Under the pieces are notes generated by a model, which ran no database searches, had not been told where the DNA came from, and worked only from the letters and a program-made list of their open reading frames with translations. This document shows, piece after piece, positions 1-58,080 of a stretch of DNA of 64,000 bases (positions within the stretch are counted from its first letter, which is position 1; each line of letters opens with the position of its first letter). The DNA lies in contig NZ_BBPP01000005.1 of assembly GCF_000787835.1 (NCBI RefSeq), forward strand, positions 1 to 64,000, written 5' to 3'. The position numbers and the translations under genes were made by a program. The stretch comes from Streptacidiphilus melanogenes (GTDB lineage: Bacteria > Actinomycetota > Actinomycetes > Streptomycetales > Streptomycetaceae).

Positions 1-458
1 CGGCCACGGCCGGCCCGACGGGCAGCCCCAGCACCGGCGTGCCCGCCCGCCGTCCCGGTCCGGCGGCGGCGCCGCCGTCGGGTCGCACCCGCCGTGCCCG
101 GCTGCGCGTGGTCCGTACGGACCCGTGGACGGTGATGAAGGTCAGCTTCCTGCTGTCCATCGCGCTCGGCGTGGTCACCGTCGTGGGCGTCTCGCTGCTG
201 TGGATGGTGCTGGACGCGGCCGGCGTCTTCAGCTCGGTCGGCGGCACCCTGAAGCAGGCCACCACGGGCACGGACGCCACCTCCGGCTTCGACCTGCAGT
301 CGTACCTGTCCTTCGGCAACGTCTTCCTGTTCACCCTGCTGATCGCGGTGGTGGACGTGGTGCTGATGACGGCGCTGTGCACGCTCGCCTCGTTCATCTA
401 CAACACGGCCGCGGGCATGACCGGCGGCGTCGAGGTGACCCTCGCCGAGGAGGACTGA
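1..458 (+). CDS. DUF3566 membrane protein, 5' partial
   Basis: The reading frame is open to the left window edge, so the true start lies upstream; the first in-window GTG is at 39. A basic, Pro/Ala/Arg-rich N-terminus precedes a conserved segment with two hydrophobic stretches (VSFLLSIALGVVTVVGVSLL and VFLFTLLIAVVDVVLMTALC) and an acidic tail ending in LAEED. This is the layout of the actinobacterial DUF3566 family. In actinobacteria this gene usually follows gyrB-gyrA close to oriC and precedes tRNA-Ile, as here. Its function is not established; a role near the membrane is implied only by the two helices. Family assignment is confident. Confidence 0.88.
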   Translation, partial: ATAGPTGSPSTGVPARRPGPAAAPPSGRTRRARLRVVRTDPWTVMKVSFLLSIALGVVTVVGVSLLWMVLDAAGVFSSVGGTLKQATTGTDATSGFDLQSYLSFGNVFLFTLLIAVVDVVLMTALCTLASFIYNTAAGMTGGVEVTLAEED

Positions 459-490
459 GCTGACCTGGGGCGCAGCCCCGGGGAAGCGAT

Positions 491-520
491 TTGGGCATTG
501 AGCTGCAGGTGCGCTAATCT
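491..520 (+). promoter_or_regulatory. candidate promoter of tRNA-Ile
   Basis: TTGGGC (491-496) and TAATCT (515-520) are separated by 18 bp and end 18 bp before the tRNA. An overlapping alternative is TTGAGC (498-503) with TCTAAC (521-526), spaced 17 bp. Either would fit a housekeeping sigma factor; this is a by-eye match only. Confidence 0.4.
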
Positions 521-538
521 TCTAACGCAACGCAGCGC

Positions 539-615
539 GGGCCTATAGCTCAGACGGTTAGAGCGCTTCCCTGATAAGGAAGAGGCCACAGGTTCAAGTC
601 CTGTTAGGCCCACCA
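539..615 (+). tRNA. tRNA-Ile (GAT), CCA encoded
   Basis: A full cloverleaf can be drawn. The acceptor arm GGGCCTA (539-545) pairs with TAGGCCC (605-611), the discriminator is A612 and CCA is encoded at 613-615. The anticodon stem CTTCC/GGAAG encloses the loop CTGATAA with anticodon GAT. The T-arm contains GGTTCAAGTCC. The place beside the gyrA-proximal DUF3566 gene and upstream of tRNA-Ala is conserved in actinobacteria. Confidence 0.97.
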
Positions 616-621
616 GCGTCA

Positions 622-652
622 GAACCCCGACTCGGTCACCGAGTCGGGGTTC
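622..652 (+). terminator. hairpin terminator after tRNA-Ile
   Basis: A perfect 14-bp stem (622-635 with 639-652) closes a 3-nt loop, ten bases after the tRNA 3' end. There is no real T-tract, as is common for high-GC actinobacterial terminators. Confidence 0.85.
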
Positions 653-733
653 GCTCGTTGTACCGCTCAGAGTGTCCGCTGATGGGGTGTAGCATCGCGG
701 CAAGGACGTCATCGAGGAAGTCGAGGTCTCGCG

Positions 734-865
734 GTGAAGAAGCTTCTGCTGGTTGTTCTCGTCGCTCTGGGCGGGTATTTCGTCTACCGCCAGGTGCAGG
801 CGGACCGTGCCGAGCAGGACCTGTGGACCGAGGCCACGGACCCGATTCCGGCCGGTTCCCGCTGA
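734..865 (+). CDS. DLW-39 family protein (43 aa)
   Basis: GTG at 734 opens a 43-residue ORF beginning MKKLLLVVLVALGGYFVYRQ and containing the diagnostic DLW tripeptide (in EQDLWTEATD). One N-terminal hydrophobic helix is followed by a short charged tail, so it is probably a single-pass membrane micro-protein with the tail outside or in the cytosol. It lies between tRNA-Ile and tRNA-Ala, the family's usual context. A GAGG sequence at 724-727 could be the ribosome-binding site. The function of the DLW-39 family is unknown. It is short enough to be missed by many gene finders, but the sequence match to the family pattern is clear. Confidence 0.9.
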   Translation: MKKLLLVVLVALGGYFVYRQVQADRAEQDLWTEATDPIPAGSR

Positions 866-923
866 GCTGACAAATGGTCTTTCCTGCCGCGCCGAGCGGG
901 TACGCTTGTGCGCGGCAGTTCGC

Positions 924-996
924 GGGGCCTTAGCTCAGTTGGTAGAGCGCCGTCTTTGCATGGCGGATGTCAGGGGTTCGACTCCCCTAGGCTCCA
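924..996 (+). tRNA. tRNA-Ala (TGC)
   Basis: The acceptor arm GGGGCCT (924-930) pairs with AGGCTCC (989-995) with one G-T wobble; the discriminator is A996 and CCA is not encoded. The anticodon stem CCGTC/GGCGG encloses TTTGCAT with anticodon TGC. The T-arm contains GGTTCGACTCC. It follows the DLW-39 gene. Confidence 0.97.
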
Positions 997-1010
997 CATT
1001 CCCGCGTACA

Positions 1011-56204: not shown

Positions 56205-56500
56205 TGCACGCCGCCGGCGCGCCCATCGGGGACGATGGAGGCGTGCTGGATGACTGGATCGCCGCTGCGAAGACCGAGCTCGGGATCGACCTGGAGGTCG
56301 ACGTCCACGGGCTGCTCGACATGACCCGGGACGTCGCGCACGGCGTTGCGCGCCCCGCCGCGCCGTTGACCGCGTTCCTGGTGGGGTACGCGGCGGCCTC
56401 GGCCGGGGGCGGTCCGGAGGCGGTTGCGGAGGCGAACCGGAAGGCCGCGCAGCTCGCGCTGCGCTGGGCCGCGGACCGCGCCGAGGAGCACCCGGAATGA
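56204..56500 (+). CDS. DUF6457 domain protein
   Basis: 98 aa; ATG at 56204 overlaps the mobA stop (TGATG). GTG at 56243 would give an 85-residue form closer to family length. It is a small all-helical protein (LDDWIAAAKTELGIDLEVDV, MTRDVAHGVARPAAPLTAFL, VGYAAASAGGGPEAVAEANR). DUF6457 genes occur regularly next to mobA in actinobacteria. A function in cofactor delivery is possible but undemonstrated. Confidence 0.82.
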   Translation: MHAAGAPIGDDGGVLDDWIAAAKTELGIDLEVDVHGLLDMTRDVAHGVARPAAPLTAFLVGYAAASAGGGPEAVAEANRKAAQLALRWAADRAEEHPE

Positions 56501-58080
56501 CGGGTCGCGAGGTCGAGACGGACCTGCTGGCCGCCTATCCGTATCTGCTGCCGCAGGCGTCGACCCCGCCGTCCCCGCCCGAGCCGGACCGTCCGTTCGA
56601 CTACGAGGCGGGCGCGGAGGAGCTGCCGCCCGCTCCTCGGTCGCCTGGAGCGGACTCCTCCTTCGACCAGGTGCTGGACGACGCCTTCGGTCTGGTCGGC
56701 CCCTCCGCGGCATCAAGATCACGAAATGCAACACGTGGCGCATTTGATGATCTTGATAAGCCGGGCGACGCCGACCCGTCCGTTCCCCCGCCCGCGACCC
56801 ACCCGGGCGAACTCGGCTGGCAGCAGGCGCGCGCGGTCGCCGCGCACGCGGGCGCGCGCCCGCTCGGCACGGAGGAGCGGGACGCGGCGGACGCGCTGGG
56901 CGCCGTCCTCGCCGCCCCCCTGACGGCCGCCACGCACCTGCCCCCCTTCGACACCTCCGCCATGGACGGCTGGGCCGTCTCCGGCCCCGGCCCCTGGCGG
57001 CTGCGGGAGCCGGCCGAGGGCGAGGGGCTGGCCGGTCGGCCGCCGGCAGCCTCGCTGCAGGACGGCGAGGCCGTGCGGATCGCGACCGGCGCGCCCGTTC
57101 CCGGCGACGCCACCGCCGTGCTGCGGCGTGAGGACGGCATCGTCCGCACCGAAGGCGTCGAGCTGGCCTGCCGTCCCGGCACCCTGTCCCCGCCGCTCGG
57201 GCGGGACATCCGCCCGCGCGGCCAGGAGTGCCGCAGCGGCGAGGTGCTGCTTCCGGCCGGGGCGTCGGTGACGCCCGCCGTGCTGGGCCTGGCCGCGGCC
57301 GCCGGGGTCGACCGGCTGACCGTGCATCGCCGACCCGTCGCCGAACTCCTGGTGCTGGGCGACGAGCTGCTCACCGAGGGCGTACCCGGGGACGGCCGGA
57401 TCCGGGACGCGCTCGGCCCGATGCTGCCCGGTTGGCTCGCCGCCTACGGTGCGACCGTCATCCGCGTGCGCCGGATCGGCGACGACCGGGACGCGCTCGT
57501 CGCCGCCCTGCGTGACGCCGACGCGGACGTCGTGGTCACCACCGGCGCGACGGCGTCCGGCCCGGCGGACTTCCTGCACCCGGCGCTGACCGAGATCGGC
57601 GCGAGACTGCTGGTCGACGGTGTCCGGGTGCGGCCCGGCCACCCCATGCTGCTGGCCGAGCTGCCCGGGTCGGCCGAGCCGGGCGCGTCGGCGCAGTCGG
57701 CCGACGCGCGGGAACCGGCGGCCGCGCGGGCGCAGCGTACGGAGGCGGGCGGCCGTCCCCGGTACCTCGTCGGACTACCCGGCAACCCCCTCGCCGCCGC
57801 CGTCGGCGCGGCCACGCTCGCCGAGCCGCTGCTGCGCGGCCTGGCCGGCTGTCCGGCCGCGGAGCCGTACCGGGTCACCGCCGCCGCGGAGTTCGCAGGT
57901 CAGACCGGCCACACCCGTCTCGTTCCCGTCGCCCTGCCCGAGCGCGGCGCTGTGCCCTTGCGGCACGACGGCCCCGCGATGCTGCGCGGGCTCGCGCTCG
58001 CCGAGGGTCTGGCCGTGGTGCCGCCCGGCGGCGTCGCGCCGGGCCGCCCGATCGAGGTGCTGGACGTGCCGTGCGGCTGA
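56497..58080 (+). CDS. moeA: molybdopterin molybdotransferase MoeA with long N-terminal extension
   Basis: 527 aa; ATG at 56497 overlaps the DUF6457 stop (ATGA). MoeA inserts molybdate into adenylylated molybdopterin. The catalytic part starts near residue 107 (LGWQQARAVAAHAGARPLGT); landmarks are PPFDTSAMDGWAVSG, RIATGAPVPGDATAVLRRED, VVVTTGATASGPADFL and LVGLPGNPLAAAVGAATLAE. The first ~105 residues are Pro/Glu/Asp-rich and disordered, absent from typical 400-residue MoeA, and contain a 46-bp near-perfect palindrome at DNA level (56712-56757) that is read in-frame. The start overlap argues the extension is translated. Confidence 0.92.
   Translation: MTGREVETDLLAAYPYLLPQASTPPSPPEPDRPFDYEAGAEELPPAPRSPGADSSFDQVLDDAFGLVGPSAASRSRNATRGAFDDLDKPGDADPSVPPPATHPGELGWQQARAVAAHAGARPLGTEERDAADALGAVLAAPLTAATHLPPFDTSAMDGWAVSGPGPWRLREPAEGEGLAGRPPAASLQDGEAVRIATGAPVPGDATAVLRREDGIVRTEGVELACRPGTLSPPLGRDIRPRGQECRSGEVLLPAGASVTPAVLGLAAAAGVDRLTVHRRPVAELLVLGDELLTEGVPGDGRIRDALGPMLPGWLAAYGATVIRVRRIGDDRDALVAALRDADADVVVTTGATASGPADFLHPALTEIGARLLVDGVRVRPGHPMLLAELPGSAEPGASAQSADAREPAAARAQRTEAGGRPRYLVGLPGNPLAAAVGAATLAEPLLRGLAGCPAAEPYRVTAAAEFAGQTGHTRLVPVALPERGAVPLRHDGPAMLRGLALAEGLAVVPPGGVAPGRPIEVLDVPCG
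56712..56757. repeat. 46-bp near-perfect palindrome inside moeA
   Basis: Nested symmetric blocks: ATCAAGATCA (56712-56721) with TGATCTTGAT (56748-56757), AAATGC (56724-56729) with GCATTT (56740-56745), and central CACGTG (56732-56737). 19 of 23 base pairs match. It is markedly AT-richer than its surroundings. Confidence 0.9.

What the first reader, a model, noticed from the sequence alone, without database searches (positions are those of the whole stretch)
56712..56757. 46-bp near-perfect palindrome read in-frame within moeA
19 of 23 pairs match around a central CACGTG; the block is AT-rich in GC-rich surroundings and lies in a disordered N-terminal extension of the protein. Its 46-bp length would disturb the frame by one base if simply inserted, so either a few flanking bases came along or the local frame was selected. 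It looks like a REP/MITE-type mobile palindrome or a protein-binding site captured by coding sequence.
Basis: partly seen in the sequence, partly recalled or inferred. Interest (0 to 1): 0.65.

Follow-up and report, generated by a model that had tools for sequence, protein, structure and literature searches.

The report
Rewritten, longer bacterial centromere (parS) site
The palindrome inside moeA is one of about 6-18 copies per genome, clustered around the replication origin, of an unusually long centromere site that replaced the ordinary short ParB-binding site parS in one branch of the soil bacterium Streptacidiphilus, together with changes in ParB's DNA-reading domain.

Summary
The palindrome is real (46 bp, 19/23 pairs, 56712-56757) but is not a mobile element. 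It is one of six copies in this Streptacidiphilus genome of a 42-46-bp palindrome with half-site AYCAWGATCRYYAAVTGYNNCAC. All copies I could place relative to parB lie in the replication-origin region. Its centre is a degraded chromosomal parS: canonical TGTTTCACGTGAAACA becomes TG-NNN-CACGTG-NNN-CA. It is flanked by invariant CAWGATC boxes 32 bp apart. The genus splits exactly in two: seven genomes carry 11-15 canonical short parS-type matches and no long sites; seven carry 6-18 long sites and essentially no canonical parS. The split matches a fully supported ParA+MoeA tree. Near parB, long sites lie in the same gene gaps where sister genomes keep short parS. ParB in the long-site clade has 14 fixed substitutions in its DNA-binding domain and none in its CTPase domain. 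The moeA copy is present in all seven long-site genomes and overrides codon usage (GC3 6% versus 92%). Best reading: a clade-specific, bipartite, extended parS recognised by a co-evolved ParB, alone or with an unknown partner. ParB binding and what reads the outer boxes are inferred, not shown.

The parts
56712..56757 (.). whole 46-bp palindrome = one extended parS-like site
   Evidence: 19/23 pairs; member of a 59-site family in 7 genomes with half-site consensus AYCAWGATCRYYAAVTGYNNCAC
56714..56720 (+). left outer box CAAGATC
   Evidence: A[A/T]GATC invariant in 118/118 half-sites, C before it 97%; not paired at other spacings with GATCTTG except rare chance hits
56727..56742 (.). degraded 16-bp parS core TGCAACACGTGGCGCA (canonical TGTTTCACGTGAAACA)
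   Evidence: TG/CA and CACGTG kept, TTT/AAA variable across sites; syntenic sites in sister genomes carry the canonical core
56732..56737 (.). central CACGTG, shared with canonical parS
56749..56755 (+). right outer box GATCTTG
56497..58080 (+). moeA (molybdopterin molybdotransferase) that hosts the site in its N-terminal extension
   Evidence: Pfam MoeA_N (from residue 110), MoCF_biosynth, MoeA_C; site codons GC3 0.06 vs 0.92 elsewhere, Fisher 4e-15

Best explanation
The palindrome is a parS-type chromosomal centromere site in a rewritten, extended form specific to one Streptacidiphilus clade. Proposed mechanism: a ParB dimer nucleates on the central TG-NNN-CACGTG-NNN-CA core through its helix-turn-helix domain. 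It then closes as a CTP-dependent clamp, slides into flanking DNA and builds the origin-proximal segrosome moved by ParA. In this clade the core lost the TTT/AAA part of the canonical site. Specificity was moved outward to two CAWGATC boxes 32 bp apart (three helical turns, same face), read either by a new ParB surface or second ParB dimer, or by a partner protein that co-binds. The copy in moeA is a site gained in this clade about 73 kb from parB and written into a poorly constrained N-terminal stretch of the protein. Shown here: the site family, its origin clustering, its mutual exclusion with canonical parS, in-place replacement near parB, and ParB DNA-binding-domain co-substitution. Inferred: ParB binding, the bipartite reading, and loading and segregation function.
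For: Copies: 6, 6, 11, 6, 6, 6 in six genomes and 17-18 in G009. Origin clustering: in G009 all 17 genome-wide hits lie within 338 kb around parB of a 9.0-Mb genome. Mutual exclusion: canonical TGTTTCACGTGAAACA (<=2 mismatches) is found 11-15 times in G001, G003, G005, G010-G013, which have no long sites; in the long-site genomes nearly all such matches are the long sites themselves. Distribution: of 395 Streptomycetaceae genomes only the 7 long-site Streptacidiphilus have them, apart from one stray 2-mismatch hit; of 118 sampled genomes of the class only the window's own. Clade: bipartition 100/100 in a ParA+MoeA tree. In-place replacement: sites 11852, 15133, 19128 and 30304 of C85 lie in the same gene gaps as canonical parS of G010, around parB. 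ParB: fixed clade-specific residues 14/91 in the DBD, 0/104 in the CTPase domain (Fisher 1.3e-5; controls 5 vs 5 and 4 vs 1), including H213 in the recognition helix and Q200, which aligns with the DNA-contacting Q162 of Caulobacter ParB (PMC7383237). Bases G1 and CAC kept in the core fit the unchanged R173/G201-equivalents of ParB. The outer boxes occur essentially only at fixed N28 spacing around the core. In moeA the DNA overrides codon choice, and all seven long-site moeA orthologues carry the site.
Against: No binding or ChIP data exist for this clade in what I could search, so ParB occupancy is inferred. The conserved specificity residues of ParB (R173, T179, K184, G201 equivalents) do not change, and several clade substitutions resemble the generic ParB consensus seen in Caulobacter and Bacillus, so the DBD changes do not by themselves explain recognition of CAWGATC. 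Site information (about 31 bits per half-site by my sum) far exceeds what one ParB dimer usually reads, hinting at a second factor. One G009 site keeps a canonical core in a different palindrome.
Confidence: 0.85

Rival explanations
1. A REP/MITE-type mobile palindrome that inserted in moeA.
For: Multi-copy palindrome, AT-rich, absent from moeA of the sister group.
Against: Where position relative to parB is known the copies are origin-proximal; 17/17 in G009 lie within 338 kb of a 9-Mb genome. Copies share a binding-site consensus with variable internal positions, not a copied sequence. They occupy syntenic gaps that hold canonical parS in sisters. No bracketing direct repeat. No match in viral contigs.
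Confidence: 0.02
2. Operator sites of a transcriptional regulator whose regulon surrounds the origin.
For: Long two-fold symmetric site; many copies are intergenic.
Against: Several copies lie inside genes (moeA in the long-site genomes; C85:102531; G009:550169). Several lie between convergent genes. Distribution follows the origin, and copies replace canonical parS in place.
Confidence: 0.04
3. A different DNA-binding protein has taken over as primary centromere reader: it binds the CAWGATC boxes (and core) and recruits ParB indirectly.
For: The outer boxes are the most conserved part (118/118 half-sites), while the ParB-type core is degraded. ParB length and domain plan are unchanged, with no extra domain.
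Against: TG and CACGTG of the core stay conserved and ParB's DBD changed in step. No candidate protein identified. Boxes are not found used apart from the core.
Confidence: 0.1
4. A DNA-structure element: the palindrome works as a hairpin or cruciform, with ParB reading secondary.
For: Variable arm positions 7-12 are palindromic within a site more often than across sites of the same genome (241/354 vs 206+/-7, 0 of 5000 shuffles). Palindromy runs 5 or more bp beyond +/-21 in 6 of 59 sites vs 1.2 expected (p 0.0006).
Against: Per-genome significance is mostly weak and many sites are orthologous, so not independent. Symmetry may arise by quasipalindrome template switching or terminator overlap. 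Base identity of the outer boxes and core is conserved, as expected for base reading.
Confidence: 0.04
5. GATC pairs at three-turn spacing read by a SeqA/Dam-like methylation system.
For: GATC invariant in 118/118 half-sites, 32 bp apart.
Against: No D12-class (Dam-type, PF02086) methyltransferase in any long-site genome.
Confidence: 0.01

Closest known systems
Canonical chromosomal parS (16-bp TGTTTCACGTGAAACA), as in Streptomyces coelicolor/venezuelae, Bacillus, Caulobacter
   Same: Central CACGTG with flanking TG/CA, two-fold symmetry, multiple copies clustered near oriC, next to parAB, same gene gaps in the sister group; single chromosomal-type ParB present.
   Different: 42-46 bp instead of 14-16; TTT/AAA lost; two invariant outer CAWGATC boxes; fewer copies in most genomes (6-18 here; literature mean 22.8 in closed streptomycete genomes, PMC8743542).
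Noc/NBS (paralogous ParB-family protein with switched site)
   Same: Shows that ParB-family DNA specificity can be rewritten through DBD substitutions (PMC7383237).
   Different: NBS is a same-length site differing at two bases per half; here the site is lengthened and the R173/T179/K184/G201-equivalents are unchanged.
Plasmid bipartite centromeres (P1 parS BoxA/BoxB)
   Same: Two classes of box recognised in one centromere; the P1 ParB C-terminal domain binds DNA (PMC5731820; box details from memory).
   Different: P1 parS is asymmetric and on a plasmid (from memory); here the outer boxes are symmetric about a chromosomal core and the ParB C-terminal domain has only 3 clade-specific residues.

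Membership tests
chromosomal ParB-parS centromere sites | near-exact 16-bp TGTTTCACGTGAAACA consensus | tested here: not met
   Window core TGCAACACGTGGCGCA; across 59 sites only TG, CACGTG and CA are conserved. Hence 'variant', not a canonical parS.
chromosomal ParB-parS centromere sites | several copies clustered around oriC/parAB | tested here: met
   G009: 17/17 within 338 kb of a 9-Mb genome, parB inside; other genomes mostly on the parB contig
chromosomal ParB-parS centromere sites | syntenic with recognised parS sites of relatives | tested here: met
   Four near-parB sites in the same gene gaps as canonical parS in G010
chromosomal ParB-parS centromere sites | cognate chromosomal ParB (ParB_N CTPase, HTH_ParB, C-terminal dimer domain) next to ParA | tested here: met
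chromosomal ParB-parS centromere sites | specific binding and loading of ParB | not testable with these tools
   needs EMSA/BLI or ChIP-seq
REP/MITE mobile palindromes | dispersed copies of one sequence at variable, strain-specific positions | tested here: not met
   Origin-confined, syntenic, degenerate consensus
REP/MITE mobile palindromes | target-site duplication or insertion border | tested here: inconclusive
   No bracketing direct repeat; the region is not reliably alignable between groups
SeqA/Dam GATC-pair sites | Dam-type methyltransferase in the genome | tested here: not met
   PF02086 absent from all long-site genomes

The most novel reading that the evidence does not exclude
A whole set of chromosomal centromeres was rewritten in place in one clade, from a one-protein 16-bp site to a bipartite 46-bp site that needs a second recognition event (a new ParB surface, a second ParB dimer or a new partner protein). 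This would be a natural case of a near-universal ParB-parS code being replaced genome-wide without a paralogue.
Probability: 0.6. Interest if true: 0.82.

Novelty: new variant of a known kind. Interest (0 to 1): 0.72.

Why it matters
parS is among the most conserved DNA sites in bacteria and one ParB reads 10-20 copies at once, so changing the site should be very hard. Two sister groups of one genus, one canonical and one rewritten, give a directly testable case of how a multi-copy centromere code and its reader co-evolve. A site more than twice the usual length also asks what extra recognition adds to ParB loading. Scans with the standard parS matrix would undercount centromeres in these species.

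Tried and rejected
Plasmid blastn of the 46-mer gave only short chance matches. Pattern scan of viral contigs found none. The Dam/SeqA idea was rejected because there is no PF02086 gene. Free-spacing search for paired outer boxes, to find a separate operator use, found essentially none beyond chance in the long-site genomes. A ParA-only tree was too weak to place the clade, so MoeA was added. AlphaFold model of ParB: mean pLDDT 62.9, ordinary ParB domain order, disordered N-terminal linker, no added domain; no fold search was run on it. One paper mentioning Streptacidiphilus with ParB and parS was found (PMC8743542); in the passages read it analyses 20 closed genomes, none of them Streptacidiphilus. 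Literature searches found no description of a lengthened chromosomal parS in the open-access library; that is not proof of absence.

Full report
Observation. It is read in frame in a 527-aa MoeA whose first Pfam domain starts at residue 110, so the site (about residues 72-87) is in the N-terminal extension. The 16 codons of the site have GC3 0.06 against 0.92 in the other 512 codons (Fisher 4e-15), so the DNA sequence dictates the amino acids.

It is a family. Searching the window's own genome (8.77 Mb, 107 contigs) with the arm found two more full palindromes of the same architecture, and a broader pattern gave six in all. Five are on contig C85 at 11.9, 15.1, 19.1, 30.3 and 102.5 kb, and parB lies at 13.5 kb of that contig. 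C85 begins with the end of what I read as gyrB from its sequence. The window begins with a small membrane-protein ORF and tRNA-Ile/tRNA-Ala, which in streptomycetes follow gyrA (my knowledge), so the moeA copy probably lies about 73 kb from parB in this genome. In S. anmyonensis-, S. jiangxiensis- and G009-type assemblies the moeA copy is on the parB contig, 72-76 kb away; in G004 it is about 83 kb away.

It is a parS derivative. In G009, sites read TGTTTCACGTGAAGCA or even TGTTTCACGTGAAACA inside the long arms. The 14 available genomes of the genus, identified as Streptacidiphilus by a scan with this ParB, split cleanly. G001, G003, G005, G010, G011, G012 and G013 have 11-15 canonical TGTTTCACGTGAAACA-type matches and no long site. 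G000, G002, G004, G006, G007, G008 and G009 have 6-18 long sites and almost no other canonical match. Of 395 Streptomycetaceae genomes drawn across 17 genera only the seven have long sites, apart from one stray two-mismatch hit; of 118 genomes across the class only the window's own does. A ParA+MoeA tree, which does not use ParB, separates the two groups with 100/100 support; ParB gives the same split. Streptomyces, outside both groups in the ParA tree, has the canonical form, so the long form is the derived one.

In-place rewriting. With C85 as reference, gene order around parB is conserved in G010, G009 and G004. The four near-parB long sites of the window genome fall in the same gene gaps as canonical parS of G010 (11852 with 4085016/4085097/4085359; 15133 with 4088544; 19128 with 4092479; 30304 with 4105301). 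The moeA copy has no counterpart in the canonical group, whose moeA lacks it, so it was gained in the long-site clade. All seven long-site genomes have it there. Within the clade the codon changes are largely synonymous among close relatives, and the frame is the same in the six genomes printed; G009 was placed by coordinates only.

Anatomy. 59 sites with flanks give the half-site A-Y-C-A-[A/T]-G-A-T-C-R-Y-Y-A-A-V-T-G-Y-N-N-C-A-C. A[A/T]GATC is invariant in 118 half-sites. C just outside the search pattern is 97% and A two further out 67%, so the conservation is not only a result of the pattern used; allowing up to five mismatches in the roughly 0.9 Mb fetched added no intermediate sites. The core keeps TG and CAC, and loses the TTT of GTTTCAC. 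By contrast 157 canonical parS of Streptomyces and sister Streptacidiphilus show no conserved AAGATC flank. Paired CAAGATC...GATCTTG boxes at free spacing 8-38 occur in long-site genomes almost only at exactly 28 bp around the core, and at scattered spacings in the other group. So the outer boxes belong with the core. The two GATC centres are 32 bp apart, about three helical turns.

ParB. There is one chromosomal-type ParB per genome with the ordinary ParB_N, HTH_ParB and ParB_C domains and no added domain. Residues fixed in the long-site clade and absent from the sister group and from 19 Streptomyces number 24: 14 in the DNA-binding domain, none in the CTPase domain (Fisher 1.3e-5). The same test for the other two groups gives no such excess. 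They include H213 in the recognition helix and Q200. By alignment with the Caulobacter ParB-DNA structure sequence Q200 corresponds to Q162, a DNA-contacting residue (PMC7383237). The Noc/ParB specificity residues R173, T179, K184 and G201 (Caulobacter numbering) are unchanged between the two groups; R173 reads guanine 1 of the half-site, which is the G the long sites keep. Alignment is the basis for these equivalences; no protein-DNA model was built.

Mechanism. Most likely ParB nucleates on the core, and the outer boxes supply the specificity lost from the TTT positions, through ParB itself or an obligatory partner. The information in the site (about 31 bits per half-site, my sum) is well over twice what is needed to be unique in 9 Mb, which is why I keep the partner-protein version at 0.1 as a rival and leave room for it in the novel case.

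Second-order signals. Variable arm positions are more palindromic within a site than between sites of the same genome. All seven genomes point the same way, but only three at p<0.05 on their own. Six of 59 sites extend the palindrome 5-12 bp beyond +/-21 with non-conserved sequence against 1.2 expected, including 9 bp in moeA of G008. Quasipalindrome template switching, overlap with terminators between convergent genes, or selection for a hairpin are possible; the data do not decide.

Known or new. Literature at hand describes 14-16-bp parS, mean 22.8 per closed streptomycete chromosome (PMC8743542), and 24 in S. coelicolor (PMC12207404). I found no account of a lengthened chromosomal parS. 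Because the canonical consensus was tested and not met, I call this a new variant that works like parS, not a canonical parS.

Noticed in passing
G009:C3:433760-433799 (locus L085): A canonical parS core sits in a different perfect 40-bp palindrome, CCGCAGCCCCCATGTTTCACGTGAAACATGGGGGCTGCGG; apparently a non-long-type parS left in a long-site genome, possibly a terminator stem.
   Followed up: no
G009:C3:428877/428928 and 432479/432530; G004:C23:390110/390162: Pairs of long sites only 51-52 bp apart (about five helical turns) near parB.
   Followed up: no
G004 sites (loci L177-L184): All eleven sites of the S. fuscans-type genome share the core TGTCAC-[A/G]CG[T/C]-GTGACA, while G009 mostly has GCTTC: the core variant is homogenised across loci within a species, suggesting continuing co-evolution with ParB.
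   Followed up: partly
ParB DBD, G000:C85 ~13.2-14.4 kb (locus L042): Several long-clade ParB substitutions (M193, Q200, H213, E235) match Caulobacter/Bacillus ParB rather than streptomycete ParB; convergence or recombination of the DBD is possible.
   Followed up: no
G000:C85:102531-102570 (locus L071): A second long site lies inside a long GC3-rich ORF (101218-104946), so moeA is not the only gene hosting one.
   Followed up: no
59 long sites in 7 genomes: Variable arm positions show within-site palindromic covariation, and some palindromes extend well past the consensus.
   Followed up: partly
window 1-1000: Small membrane-protein ORF with tRNA-Ile and tRNA-Ala: the window starts next to the gyrA side of oriC.
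   Followed up: partly
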